Assembly: GCA_022842905.1 (NCBI GenBank)
Contig: JALHOS010000003.1
Span: 1 to 58,369, forward strand
Direction: 5' to 3'
Source: Myxococcaceae bacterium
GTDB lineage: Bacteria; Myxococcota; Myxococcia; Myxococcales; Myxococcaceae
DNA length: 58,369 nucleotides
Positions 1,194 to 5,495 of this stretch are shown here, in pieces. Numbering within the stretch: position 1 is the first letter of the stretch; each line of letters begins with the position of its first letter. The position numbers and the translations under genes are program-made. The notes beneath the pieces are model-generated. The model made no database searches. It saw only the letters and a program-made list of their open reading frames with translations, and had not been told where the DNA came from.

Positions 1194-2330
1194 TCACCTG
1201 ACGGCGCGCGCGCGCTGCACCGCGATCGTCAGGGCGCCGGCCAGCGCGCTCAGCGCTTCGGCAGGCGTCTGCAGTCCAAAGGACACGCGCAGCGCCGACC
1301 GGGCCTGCTCGGCGCTCAGCCCCATGGCGGTCAGCACGTGGGACGGCGCGACGCTGCCCGACGCGCAGGCGGCGCCGGTCGACACGGCGAAGCCTTCGAG
1401 ATCGAGCGCCATGAGCAGAGCGTCGGCTGCGAGCCCGTCGAAGCGCAGGTTGCTGGTGGTGGGGAGCCGTGGGGCCGTACCGCCGGTGATCTCCACGCCG
1501 CTGATCGACGCCAGCACCGCGCGTTCGAACGCGTCGCGGCGCGCGGCGGCCGCCTCGAGCGCGCCCAGTTCAGCCACACAGAGCTCGAGCGCGAGCGCCG
1601 CCGCCCCGAGCAGCGCGACGTTCGGCGTGCCGGCCTGCCGCCCACCCTCTTGGTGCCCTGGAACGAGGGGCTCGAGCTGAACGGAAGGGGCGCAGATGAG
1701 GAAGCCCACTCCAGCCGGTCCGCCGAGCTTGTGGCTCGAGAAGGACAGGAGCGGGGCGTGTACGGCGCGCAGGCTGACCGGCACTCGCCCGACGGCCTGG
1801 ACGGCGTCGGTGTGGAAGATGACCCCCAGCCGCTCACAGCGCTCGGCGACGGCCTCCACGGGCTGCAGCACGCCCGTCTCGTTGTTCGCCCACATGAGCG
1901 AGGCGACCGCCACCGACGCATCGAGGGCCTGCTCGAAGGCGGCGGCGTCGACCACGCCGTCGGGCCTGGGCTGGACCACGCGCAACGTCGCGCCGTGGGC
2001 GGTCAACACCTTCGCCGCCTCCAGCACGCTGGGGTGTTCGATCGCGCTGACGACGACGGTGCTGCGCGAGCGGTCCTTGCGCGCGAAGAACGCGCCCCGC
2101 AGGGCGAGCGCCGCAGCCGCCGAGCCCGAGCTGGTGAAGATGAGCTCCTTGGGGCCGACCCCGAGCGCTGCCGCCGCCCGTCGCCGTGCGTCCTCGAGCA
2201 GCCGCCGCGCGGCGCGACCCAGCCCGTGCACGCTCGACGGGTTTCCGAGCTGGTCGGCGAAGGCGCGCTGGAGGTGCTCGAGGACGGCCGGGCGCAGCGG
2301 TGCGCCGGCGTTCCAGTCGAAGTGCTTCAC
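1194..2330 (-). CDS. Cysteine desulfurase, NifS/IscS-like (class V aminotransferase)
   Basis: PLP enzyme of 378 residues that removes sulfur from cysteine, giving alanine and a protein persulfide for Fe-S cluster or thio-cofactor synthesis in the cytoplasm. Visible family marks are GNPSSVH near the N-terminus, the IEHPSV segment, ANNETG, the PLP-lysine motif SFSSHKLGGP, and a C-terminal active-site cysteine loop GAACASGS followed by the helix that ends in LRVSFG. GTG start; its first four bases overlap the stop of the upstream DHH gene, so the two are translationally coupled. No iscR, iscU or sufE lies alongside, so the sulfur acceptor is unknown. Confidence 0.88.
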   Translation of the reverse strand: MKHFDWNAGAPLRPAVLEHLQRAFADQLGNPSSVHGLGRAARRLLEDARRRAAAALGVGPKELIFTSSGSAAAALALRGAFFARKDRSRSTVVVSAIEHPSVLEAAKVLTAHGATLRVVQPRPDGVVDAAAFEQALDASVAVASLMWANNETGVLQPVEAVAERCERLGVIFHTDAVQAVGRVPVSLRAVHAPLLSFSSHKLGGPAGVGFLICAPSVQLEPLVPGHQEGGRQAGTPNVALLGAAALALELCVAELGALEAAAARRDAFERAVLASISGVEITGGTAPRLPTTSNLRFDGLAADALLMALDLEGFAVSTGAACASGSVAPSHVLTAMGLSAEQARSALRVSFGLQTPAEALSALAGALTIAVQRARAVR

Positions 2331-3394
2331 GGCTCGGCGGACAGCAGCGACACGCCGCGCTCACCCTCGACGCCGAAGGCAACCTTGAACCGCCGGACGA
2401 TCTCCTGGCGCAGCGTGGCGCGCTGCTTCCGCGTTCCGGTCAACGGCAGGCGAGCGCCGGCCATGCTGCCATGACCGCCGGCCGAGCCGCCGAGATCCGA
2501 GCAGATCTCCCGGATCAGCCGCCCAGCGTTCATGCGGCGGTCGTTCACGCGCAACGACAGGAACAAGTGCGAACGAAAGCTCCCGTGGGCCAGCGACCAC
2601 TTCGCGCCTTCCAAGAAGCTCAGGCGCTCGGCGACCTCGGCGACCATGTCCGGCGTGTACACGTCGCCCAGATCGGTGATCAGCGCGCCGGGGAACAGCC
2701 GCGCCTTCTCGATCGCCGCGTGGTACAGCCGGAAGTAGCGCAGCGGCAGGGTGGGGTGCTCGATCTGCGCGAGCAGCCCGCGGTCGATGCGAGGGAACAG
2801 CCACAAGTAGCACTCGACGTCGTGCTCCTGCGTCTGCCGCTCGAGGTCCCGCGTGTCCGCTTTGATGCCGTAGTAGAGCGCCGTCGCCAGCCGAGGATCC
2901 GGCTCGAGCTTCGCCGCGCGCGCGTACTCCGTCAGCAGCGTCGACGTGGCCCCGTAGTCGCCGCCCAAGTCCGCGAAGGGGTTCTCGAGCGGCTCGTCGC
3001 GCATCGGGTGGTGGTCGATGACGATGTCGGCGCGCAGATCCGAAGGCAGGGCGTGGTTCCCGACGGACTGCTGGGTGTCGACCAGCCCGAACAGATCGTA
3101 GTCGGCCAGGTGCACGTCGTTGAACGGCTTCACGTCGAGCTCGAGCACGCGCACGAACGCGGCGTTCTCCGCTCGGCCGATGATGCCGCCGTAGGCGATG
3201 TCGCAGGGCAGGGCGCACTGGTGCTGGAGCACCGCACCGAGCGCCGCGGCGCTGGCCAGGGAGTCCGGATCGGGGTTGTCGTGGGTCAGCAGCAGGCCGC
3301 GCTTGCGGCCCTTGAAGCTGCGCTTGAGGCGGGCGACCTTCTCCTTGGCGGAGAGGCTGGCGACCGTCAGCTCCGTGTTGGCCTCGCCAGGCAC
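2327..3394 (-). CDS. DHH-family phosphoesterase (NrnA-like)
   Basis: Cytosolic Mn-dependent phosphoesterase of 355 residues, of the family that includes nanoRNase/pAp phosphatases. Motif I reads THDNPDPDSLAS and the family-defining DHH triplet is in DIVIDHHPM. The C-terminal DHHA1-type glycine-rich stretch is GGSAGGHGSMAGA. Likely substrates are very short oligonucleotides, pAp or cyclic-dinucleotide products such as pApA; the sequence does not decide among these. GTG start, 10 bases after the stop of the Fic-fold gene, with a 4-base overlap into the cysteine desulfurase gene. A c-di-AMP cyclase is encoded 45 kb away in this window, which makes a pApA role worth considering. Confidence 0.85.
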   Translation of the reverse strand: MPGEANTELTVASLSAKEKVARLKRSFKGRKRGLLLTHDNPDPDSLASAAALGAVLQHQCALPCDIAYGGIIGRAENAAFVRVLELDVKPFNDVHLADYDLFGLVDTQQSVGNHALPSDLRADIVIDHHPMRDEPLENPFADLGGDYGATSTLLTEYARAAKLEPDPRLATALYYGIKADTRDLERQTQEHDVECYLWLFPRIDRGLLAQIEHPTLPLRYFRLYHAAIEKARLFPGALITDLGDVYTPDMVAEVAERLSFLEGAKWSLAHGSFRSHLFLSLRVNDRRMNAGRLIREICSDLGGSAGGHGSMAGARLPLTGTRKQRATLRQEIVRRFKVAFGVEGERGVSLLSAEP

Positions 3395-3404
3395 GTGGGT
3401 TCCT

Positions 3405-4232
3405 TCAGCGGTACACGCGACTGAGATCGCGGAAGTACTTGAGGCCGTTGTCGAGGCCGTTGTCCATGGCGTCGAGGAGCAGGTTGGTGAAGCTCGTCAG
3501 CGAGCCCTTGAAGGCCTCGTGGTATTTCTGGCGGTCCTTGTCCACGACGACGATCGGGAAGAACCCGTTGCGCATGAGGATGAAGTTGGACAGCAGCCGG
3601 CCCACCTTCCCCGAGTGCTCGGTGAACGGGAAGACCTGAAGGAACTGGTACTGGAAGCGGCAGGACTGGAGCAGCGGGTGCATCTCCCGGAAGTCCGCCG
3701 AGGCGGTCCAGTCGAGCAGCTTCTCGAGCATGGGCTGGATCTTCGCCGGCTGCGCGATCTCGTGCGTGTACGTGCGGTGCAGCGGCATCTCCTTGCGGTA
3801 GCCCTGCTTCTCACGTTCCTTGGCGAGCTCCTTCTCGGTCCGCTCGCGGCGCTCGGCTTGGGCTCGCGCGGCCTGGGCTTCGGGCGTGGAGCCGGACACC
3901 AGTTCGTGCACGCGCTTCACCAAGGTCAGCGTGATCGCCGAGTGCTTCTTCGACGTCTTCGCTTCCTCGCGCATGGCGTCGACGGCGGCCTTGTGGTTTC
4001 GGATCTCCCAGACGATCGGCAGCAGCGACGCCTCGGCCGCGACGGCGCCGGGGTGTAGCGCTGCGGTCAGATCCGACGGCGCGTAGACGGACCCCTCGAG
4101 CGCGTTGTCGTGGTAGACCCACGACATTTCGAACCGCTCCAAGTAGTCCTGAACTTCCGGCCGACGCACCGACAGGGCTTCCCGCAGGCGCTTCGTCTTC
4201 TCCTCGATACTCTGCAACCGCTCCTTGTTCAC
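3405..4232 (-). CDS. Fic-fold protein with degenerate active-site motif
   Basis: A 275-residue protein resembling the Fic/DOC family, whose active members transfer AMP or related groups to proteins using the motif HPFxxGNGRxxR. Here the equivalent segment reads FPFTEHSGKVGRLL: the catalytic His is Phe, the GN pair is HS and the first Arg is Lys, while the last Gly-Arg and the helix after it are kept. Near residues 40-47 the segment HDNALEGS resembles the inhibitory (S/T)xxxE(G/N) helix. A charged, probably helical stretch (residues about 125-150) follows. GTG start, first gene of a three-gene run with the DHH and desulfurase genes. Either a non-catalytic binder or an enzyme with different chemistry. 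Confidence 0.7.
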   Translation of the reverse strand: MNKERLQSIEEKTKRLREALSVRRPEVQDYLERFEMSWVYHDNALEGSVYAPSDLTAALHPGAVAAEASLLPIVWEIRNHKAAVDAMREEAKTSKKHSAITLTLVKRVHELVSGSTPEAQAARAQAERRERTEKELAKEREKQGYRKEMPLHRTYTHEIAQPAKIQPMLEKLLDWTASADFREMHPLLQSCRFQYQFLQVFPFTEHSGKVGRLLSNFILMRNGFFPIVVVDKDRQKYHEAFKGSLTSFTNLLLDAMDNGLDNGLKYFRDLSRVYR

Positions 4233-4323: not shown

Positions 4324-4418
4324 CGATGGGGCATGGGAATCGAACCCACCAGCCGACGCTCGCGCGGCAACTCGCTGGTTTTGAAGACCAGGCCCATCAC
4401 CAGATGGGCCGCCCCACC
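4324..4418 (-). tRNA. selC: tRNA-Sec (TCA), selenocysteine tRNA
   Basis: Minus-strand tRNA of 95 bases. It has an 8-bp acceptor stem, GGTGGGGC with GCCCCATC, discriminator G at 4324, and a long D stem (GGCCCAT/ATGGGCC). The anticodon stem CTGGT/ACCAG has loop CTTCAAA, giving anticodon TCA. A long variable arm and the T arm GTGGG-TTCGATT-CCCAT follow. The 8+5 arrangement, G discriminator and TCA anticodon together identify selC. CCA is not encoded. The organism should therefore decode UGA as selenocysteine; selA, selB and selD are not in the window. Confidence 0.95.
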
Positions 4419-4472: not shown

Positions 4473-5495
4473 TCAGTCCAGCCCGCGTTCGTAGAGCTCG
4501 TCCTCGTCGAGGCCCAAGAGGTGGCCGACCTCGTGGAGCACGGTGACGCCGATCTCCTCGATCAGCTCGTCGCGAGTCGTGGCGAAGCGCTCGAGGTTCT
4601 TCTGGAAGAGCGAGATGTGCGTGGTGACGTGGTGAGCGGGCTCGCTGTCCAGCCGCTCGTCGATCGGCACGCCGCGGAAGATGCCGAGGATCGACGGCGA
4701 CACGCCTTCTTTGAGATCGTCGTCGCTCGGCAGGGGCTGCACGTCGATGATCGCGTTGGCCAGGTGTGGCTTGGCGTGGGCGGGCAGCCCGGCGACCGCT
4801 TCGGCGACGGCGGCGTCGAACTCGGTCGAGGAGAGAGACGCCGGCTCGGGGAACTCTTCGGGCGCCATGTCGCGAGCGCGGGCAAAGTGCACCTCGGCGT
4901 CGGCACCTCTTCGCTCGGCGATGAGGCCCAGGTAGTGGTGCGCCCAAGGCTCCGACGGATCCAGCGTGAGCAGCTTCTGCATCGCCTTGCTGGCCTCGTC
5001 GAAGCGCGCCAGTTCGAACAGCGCGACGCCCCGCTCGAGCATGCCCTCGAGGTGCTCCGGCTCCAGCGTGAGCACGCGGTCCAGCGCCTTGAGCGCGGCG
5101 GCGCAGTCACCCAGCTGGTTCTGGGCGATGCCGACGAGCAGGTGCCACGCAGCCTCGACCTCGGCGTCGGCGGTGACCTTTCTTCGAATGGGCTCGAGGA
5201 GCTCCAGGCCCTCTTCGATGCGCTCGCGATCGTCCCCGGGGTAGCGGATCTTCGCGTCGGCCGCGGCGAGCACCCAGGCGGGGTTCGTCGGCTCCCGCTC
5301 CATGAGCGCGTCGAACACCTCGTCCGCCTGTTCGAACTCGCCGAGCTCGCAGAGGACGACGGCTTGCAGATCCATCGCCTCGAGCGCGTGGGGATCGGCG
5401 GCGAGGGCCCGCTGCGCGGAGTCGAGCGCGGCGTCGAGCTCTCCGTCCTCGTAGGCGCCGACTGCGCGGTCCAGCCACTCTTGAGCGGAAGGCAT
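4473..5495 (-). CDS. TPR-repeat protein with C-terminal minimal zincin metallopeptidase domain
   Basis: A 340-residue protein. The first ~220 residues are tetratricopeptide-like helical pairs, recognisable by repeated A..D..LALDP patterns. The last ~120 residues match the zincin-like metallopeptidase family (PF06262 type), ending in VTVLHEVGHLLGLDEDEL, where HExxH provides two zinc His ligands and the catalytic Glu, and a following acidic residue can supply the third ligand. There is no signal peptide, so it is probably cytoplasmic. ATG start. It is followed on the same strand by selC only. Substrate unknown. Confidence 0.8.
   Translation of the reverse strand: MPSAQEWLDRAVGAYEDGELDAALDSAQRALAADPHALEAMDLQAVVLCELGEFEQADEVFDALMEREPTNPAWVLAAADAKIRYPGDDRERIEEGLELLEPIRRKVTADAEVEAAWHLLVGIAQNQLGDCAAALKALDRVLTLEPEHLEGMLERGVALFELARFDEASKAMQKLLTLDPSEPWAHHYLGLIAERRGADAEVHFARARDMAPEEFPEPASLSSTEFDAAVAEAVAGLPAHAKPHLANAIIDVQPLPSDDDLKEGVSPSILGIFRGVPIDERLDSEPAHHVTTHISLFQKNLERFATTRDELIEEIGVTVLHEVGHLLGLDEDELYERGLD

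What the first reader, a model, noticed from the sequence alone, without database searches (positions are those of the whole stretch)
3405..4232. Fic-fold protein lacking the catalytic histidine
The motif segment reads FPFTEHSGKVGR, against HPFxxGNGRxxR: His is Phe, GN is HS, Arg is Lys. The overall helical pattern and an inhibitory-type helix (NALEGS) are kept. Loss of the base rules out the classical AMP transfer, yet a few Fic relatives (AvrB, for example) do other chemistry without that His. It starts a coupled three-gene set with a DHH phosphoesterase and a cysteine desulfurase.
Basis: partly seen in the sequence, partly recalled or inferred. Interest (0 to 1): 0.6.

Follow-up and report, generated by a model that had tools for sequence, protein, structure and literature searches.

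The report
Conserved Fic protein without catalytic histidine
This gene makes a relative of the human chaperone-modifying enzyme FICD that lost its catalytic histidine long ago and was then kept, with a rebuilt active-site region, across nearly a whole bacterial phylum, so it probably does a different and still unknown job.

Summary
ORF 3405-4232(-) encodes a 275-aa Fic-fold protein whose motif reads FPFTEHSGKVGR. It is neither decay nor sequencing error. Orthologs occur in 176 of 195 held Myxococcota genomes at E<=1e-30, and all 102 distinct sequences read carry Phe (95) or Tyr (7) at the His site. Rare orthologs exist outside the phylum (2 of 189 genomes). Close pairs are under purifying selection (47 pairs, median dN/dS 0.10).

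The nearest solved structure is human FICD, not AvrB: Z 29.4 against 11.9. The loss came with other changes. The Ser/Thr of the inhibitory helix is always Asp/Glu, Asn of the anion loop is mostly Ser/Thr, and the flap gained near-invariant His and Tyr. The inhibitory acid (46) and second Arg (212) are kept in 102 of 102.

The neighbours DHH, cysteine desulfurase, endonuclease IV, ilvE and an AAA ATPase recur but change between families.

Best explanation: an ancient FICD-type pseudo-AMPylase that binds a partner or phosphorylated ligand. Main rival: an enzyme with a new active site built from the His/Tyr flap. Function is untested. I rate it a new variant of a known kind: His-to-Gln Doc proteins were already described.

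The parts
3405..4232 (-). His-less FICD-type Fic protein, 275 aa
   Evidence: Pfam Fic; AF2 model pLDDT 87.9; FICD Z 29.4; orthologs
3597..3632 (-). degenerate Fic motif FPFTEHSGKVGR, residues 201-212
   Evidence: sequence; Phe/Tyr at position 201 in 102 of 102 distinct relatives
3762..3797 (-). remodelled flap, residues 146-157 (R146, H152, Y155, H157)
   Evidence: R146, Y155, H157 102/102, H152 101/102; canonical Fics mostly have Ile/Val at 152 and no Tyr among the commonest residues at 155
4092..4112 (-). inhibitory-helix motif HDNALEG, residues 41-47, with Asp/Glu in place of Ser/Thr at 42
   Evidence: position 42 D61/E41 and position 46 E86/D16 of 102; S/T at 42 in 22 of 23 canonical rows
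2327..3394 (-). DHH/DHHA1 phosphoesterase-like gene, starts 10 bases after the Fic stop
   Evidence: Pfam; same strand downstream at 38 of 73 loci
1194..2330 (-). NifS/DndA-like cysteine desulfurase gene, overlaps the DHH gene by 4 bases
   Evidence: Pfam and NCBIfam; same strand downstream at 37 of 73 loci

Best explanation
The gene encodes an ancient FICD-type Fic protein that stopped using the AMP-transfer chemistry before or near the base of the Myxococcota and has been kept since as a core, largely vertically inherited gene. Shown: fold, absent His, fixed Phe/Tyr, purifying selection, concerted rebuilding of pocket and flap, and retention of the inhibitory acid-Arg pair. Inferred: it does not transfer AMP. 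It works as a binding module in which the locked Fic pocket and the His/Tyr-rich flap hold one specific partner, either a protein segment or a phosphorylated ligand, and pass this on to a process that differs in gene neighbourhood between families.
For: Phe/Tyr at the His site in 102 of 102 distinct sequences, plus Met and Tyr in the two orthologs outside the phylum. His-less rows form one side of a branch, 99/97; SH-aLRT 98 with the motif columns left out. dN/dS median 0.104, range 0.027-0.224, over all 47 pairs above 85% identity. Present in 176 of 195 phylum genomes at E<=1e-30, including a 1.3 Mb genome rated 99% complete. FICD is the best structural match for two orthologs, Z 29.4 and 25.8. 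Catalytic parts are lost or loose: His 0/102; Asn 3/102; first Arg/Lys 89/102; Mg acid 83/102. The inhibitory acid at 46 and the second Arg at 212 are 102/102. By analogy, FICD His363Ala forms a long-lived complex with AMPylated BiP (PMC8373988, passages read), so loss of this His can turn a Fic protein into a binder.
Against: No binding partner is known or tested. Near-invariant His152, Tyr155 and His157 look more like a working site than a passive surface. Neighbours change between families, so no single partner is implied. The tools gave no model coordinates, so distances between the conserved residues were not measured. In the wider set of 495 pairs, median dN/dS was 0.52; most of those pairs are distant and dS is near saturation there, so I rely on the close pairs.
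Confidence: 0.55

Rival explanations
1. It is an active enzyme with a new active site. The flap residues H152, Y155, H157 and R146, with H41 and the acids at 42 and 46, replace the lost His and catalyse another transfer or hydrolysis, perhaps with a metal.
For: H41, Y155, H157, R146 and the D/E pair at 42 and 46 are 102/102, H152 101/102. The S/T-to-D/E swap and the I/V-to-His swap are specific to this subfamily against 23 canonical rows. AvrB shows that a Fido fold can rhamnosylate (PMC10866546, listing and passages read) although it lacks the motif (PMC4454073, passages read).
Against: H41 and H157 also align with His residues of human FICD, so part of the set is inherited. The flap is a less confident part of the model (pLDDT blocks 71-77). 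No geometry was measured.
Confidence: 0.27
2. It is a ligand sensor: the pocket still binds a nucleotide or an isoprenoid diphosphate as FICD does, without transferring it.
For: Human FicD binds farnesyl diphosphate in the ADP position through N369, R371 and D367-Mg (PMC12974487, passages read). The matching acid and basic residues are kept in 83 and 89 of 102.
Against: N369 is Ser/Thr in 98 of 102, 13 of 102 have no Arg/Lys at the first Arg site, and an extra acid stands at position 42 in all.
Confidence: 0.1
3. It is still a weak AMPylase that works without the His.
For: A His-to-Ala mutant of IbpA kept some activity, as reported in PMC4454073 (section 6 read). Pfam still scores all 56 members tested as Fic.
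Against: His, Asn and, in part, the first Arg are all replaced, while the inhibitory acid-Arg pair is fixed.
Confidence: 0.05
4. Local decay or sequencing error in this genome.
For: The organism's other Fic proteins keep HPFxDGNGR (two read), so a lone oddity would look like decay.
Against: Same substitution in all 102 distinct relatives, open frames, dN/dS about 0.1 in close pairs.
Confidence: 0.01

Closest known systems
FICD/HYPE, metazoan AMPylase and deAMPylase of BiP (Fic class II, N-terminal inhibitory helix)
   Same: Whole core aligns: Z 29.4, rmsd 2.2 over 244 residues; family profile E about 1e-36 over positions 5-238 of 257. Shared YH..A.EG helix, PF, G, second Arg, R..YY.
   Different: Catalytic His363 is Phe/Tyr, Asn369 Ser/Thr, Thr of the inhibitory helix Asp/Glu, flap rebuilt. 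No TPR domain or membrane anchor in the 275-aa protein.
BT_2513 and other canonical bacterial class II Fic proteins (PDB 3cuc, 4rgl)
   Same: Fold and domain order; Z 25.3 and 24.2.
   Different: The 23 canonical rows I used carry the His, nearly all as HPFxDGNGR; they fall on the other side of a 99/97 branch.
Doc clade D2, His-to-Gln (Khater and Mohanty 2015, PMC4454073)
   Same: A described Fic/Doc clade in which the His is replaced throughout.
   Different: Doc-type single domains with Qx[F/Y]x[D/E][G/V]NKR (45 sequences in that paper). Here the parent is FICD-like and the residue Phe/Tyr.
AvrB
   Same: Fido fold without the canonical motif; catalyses rhamnosylation (PMC10866546, passages read).
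   Different: Only Z 11.9, 9% identity. No specific link found.

Membership tests
Fic/Doc fold family (Pfam PF02661) | score above the curated cut-off | tested here: met
   38.6 bits against 24; 56 of 56 members match at E<=0.01
Fic/Doc fold family (Pfam PF02661) | Fic helical fold | tested here: met
   AF2 models of two orthologs, FICD Z 29.4 and 25.8
Fic AMP transferase | invariant catalytic His of HPFx[D/E]GN[G/K]R | tested here: not met
   Phe 95, Tyr 7 of 102 distinct sequences
Fic AMP transferase | Asn and both Arg of the anion loop | tested here: not met
   Asn 3/102 (Ser 87, Thr 11, Ala 1); first Arg K74/R15, 13 others; second Arg 102/102
Fic AMP transferase | transfer of AMP to a hydroxyl of a target | not testable with these tools
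   needs a biochemical assay
Class II Fic with N-terminal inhibitory helix | [S/T]xxxE[G/N] N-terminal to the core | tested here: not met
   helix and G47 kept, acid E86/D16 of 102, but Ser/Thr is D61/E41
FICD orthologs | TPR domain fused to the Fic core | tested here: not met
   275 aa; alignment begins at FICD residue 190; only Fic found by Pfam
AvrB family | specific similarity to AvrB beyond the shared Fido fold | tested here: inconclusive
   Z 11.9, rmsd 3.4, 9% identity, far below FICD
Fic toxin-antitoxin module (class I) | separate small antitoxin gene carrying the inhibitory helix | tested here: inconclusive
   the inhibitory helix lies in the same chain and the recurring neighbours found were DHH, desulfurase, endonuclease IV, ilvE, AAA and TPR genes; ORFs under 60 aa were not scanned

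The most novel reading that the evidence does not exclude
A phylum-wide core enzyme family has built a new active site on the FICD fold. The catalytic His was exchanged for Phe while a His/Tyr flap and a second acid in the inhibitory helix appeared, giving a Fic-fold protein with a reaction not known for any Fic protein, in a gene set with nucleic-acid phosphoesterases.
Probability: 0.2. Interest if true: 0.8.

Novelty: new variant of a known kind. Interest (0 to 1): 0.55.

Why it matters
Fic proteins are usually treated as AMPylases, toxins or effectors defined by one histidine. Here a lineage-wide, probably housekeeping member lacks it and has been under strong constraint. That is a clean natural case for asking what the Fic fold does without AMP transfer, and what FICD-like autoinhibition is for when there is nothing left to inhibit. 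It also marks a likely mis-reading: such proteins match the Pfam Fic model, so readers will assume AMPylation.

Tried and rejected
Decay or error: rejected. AvrB-like origin: no specific signal. Toxin-antitoxin or defence module: PADLOC gives only general Fic models (PDC-S04, PDC-S24, SoFic) and the desulfurase cross-hits SspA and DndA. Selenium link through the tRNA-Sec gene next door: it is near the Fic gene only in the window's close relatives, on either strand, and was not seen at the other loci, so I treat it as chance neighbourhood. AAA ATPase as obligate partner: found in 109 of 195 genomes against 176 for the Fic protein, and not detected in many genomes that keep the Fic gene. Plasmid search gave only relatives below 60% identity, the 15 rows shown at 24-27%; I read no motifs there. 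Paper searches found no description of this subfamily; the library holds only open-licence papers.

Limits: motifs were read in 102 distinct sequences, not in every genome that matched. Dropped before that count: L003 (duplicate of the window gene), L052 (ends before the motif), L147 (fragment of another Fic gene), identical sequences, and the 30 loci L094-L123, whose motifs I did not tabulate. The tally of 178 includes two genomes, G117 and G175, that drop out at E<=1e-30; I use 176 (185 matches less the 9 outside the phylum). In one search the own-genome locus L002 did not reach the threshold, so its motif was not read.

Full report
What is there. ORF 3405-4232 on the minus strand encodes 275 residues that score as Fic in Pfam (38.6 bits, cut-off 24). 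Residues 201-212 read FPFTEHSGKVGR. The best AlphaFold2 model has pLDDT 87.9 and pTM 0.87. VIA-align places human FICD first (7b7z_A, Z 29.4, rmsd 2.2, 244 residues), then C. elegans Fic-1 (Z 27.1) and BT_2513 (Z 25.3); AvrB is at Z 11.9. Foldseek agrees on FICD, E 7.7e-11. A second model, of a distant ortholog (L053, 37% identical), is weaker (pLDDT 71.6) but again gives FICD first, Z 25.8. A profile of 56 family members finds FICD at E about 1e-36 over nearly the whole length.

It is conserved, not decayed. 59 of 60 near relatives have a match at E<=1e-5. In the phylum, 178 of 195 genomes match at E<=1e-12 and 176 at E<=1e-30. One 1.3 Mb genome rated 99% complete keeps it. I read 102 distinct sequences. 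The His site is Phe in 95 and Tyr in 7, never His. Codons there are TTC 71, TTT 24, TAC 4, TAT 3. For the 47 pairs above 85% identity dN/dS is 0.027-0.224, median 0.104. An earlier run on 495 mixed pairs gave a median of 0.52; most of those pairs are too distant for the method.

Outside the phylum, 189 further genomes were searched and 9 matched at E<=1e-30. Seven of these carry a canonical motif with His and GNGR, and two do not: G321 reads MPYGRFSGRLAR, and G284 reads YPFSAWSGIVGR in a gene that is broken across two contig ends. A tree of 57 His-less and 23 canonical Fic sequences puts the two groups on either side of one branch (ultrafast bootstrap 99, SH-aLRT 97). This stays at SH-aLRT 98 when the motif columns are left out. 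Several rows have long branches, L182 and L001 among them. The branching mostly keeps genomes of one family together, as expected for a largely vertical gene.

The loss came with other changes. Position 42, Ser/Thr in 22 of 23 canonical rows, is Asp (61) or Glu (41). Position 207, Asn in 21 of 23 canonical rows, is Ser (87), Thr (11), Asn (3) or Ala (1). Position 206, Gly in all 23 canonical rows, is free. The flap, V/I-rich in many canonical Fics, reads P-L-H-R-T-Y-x-H: H152 101/102, Y155 and H157 102/102. H41, G47, R146, P202, G208, R212, R234 and Y237 are 102/102; several of these are shared with FICD in the printed alignment. The acid at 46 (Glu 86, Asp 16) and the second Arg, which form the autoinhibitory salt bridge in Fic proteins (PMC5033356 and PMC12974487, passages read), are kept in all. 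The Mg acid (83/102) and the first Arg/Lys (89/102) are not. So the parts needed for AMP transfer are gone or loose, while the lock and a new flap are fixed.

How it most likely works. Shown: fold, loss, constraint, rebuilt flap. Inferred: no AMP transfer, because the His is the general base and is also needed for deAMPylation in FICD (PMC8373988, passages read). FICD His363Ala forms a long-lived complex with its modified client (same source), so a His-less FICD fold can hold a partner rather than turn it over. I therefore favour a binding role (0.55) over a new active site (0.27), a diphosphate sensor (0.10) or residual AMPylation (0.05). The sensor idea rests on farnesyl diphosphate binding by human FicD (PMC12974487, passages read).

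Neighbours. In the window, DHH starts 10 bases after the Fic stop and the DHH and desulfurase ORFs overlap by 4 bases. Across 84 loci from 29 families, same-strand neighbours were: ilvE upstream at 35 of 77 loci (11 of 27 families); AAA ATPase upstream at 24 of 77 (6 of 27); endonuclease IV downstream at 22 of 73 (6 of 27); DHH at 38 of 73 (8 of 27); cysteine desulfurase at 37 of 73 (9 of 27); a TPR protein at 7 of 73 (5 of 27). Denominators count loci with at least 2.5 kb on that side, and many loci are from the window's own family. In G284, outside the phylum, endonuclease IV also follows the Fic piece by 20 bases. The gene set is thus old but loose, and suggests no single pathway.

Known or new. 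Khater and Mohanty (PMC4454073, section 6 read) described a Doc clade with His replaced by Gln and suggested functions other than AMPylation. The idea of a His-less Fic/Doc clade is therefore in print. I found no account of this Phe/Tyr, FICD-like, phylum-wide subfamily in searches. Of PMC12409994 and PMC6408439 I also read passages; they treat the His as invariant or essential.

Noticed in passing
window 4324-4418 (-): A tRNA-Sec gene lies about 90 bases upstream of the Fic-like ORF. In close relatives it is nearby on either strand; it was not seen at the other loci.
   Followed up: partly
L165:1227-2807, L166:757-2586 (G029, G014, window's family): Another Fic paralog keeps the His but has GS for GN: HPFAVGSGRMGR.
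   Followed up: no
L128:4704-6053, L084:5423-6757: A roughly 450-aa AAA ATPase directly upstream of the Fic gene in six families; weak Pfam AAA and weak IetA-like hits, often two or three copies per genome.
   Followed up: partly
window 4473-5495 (-): TPR protein with a C-terminal zincin-like metallopeptidase domain (Zincin_1), just upstream of tRNA-Sec and the Fic gene in the window's clade.
   Followed up: no
L053:5893-6858 (+): A distant ortholog carries a long acidic, low-complexity C-terminal tail.
   Followed up: no
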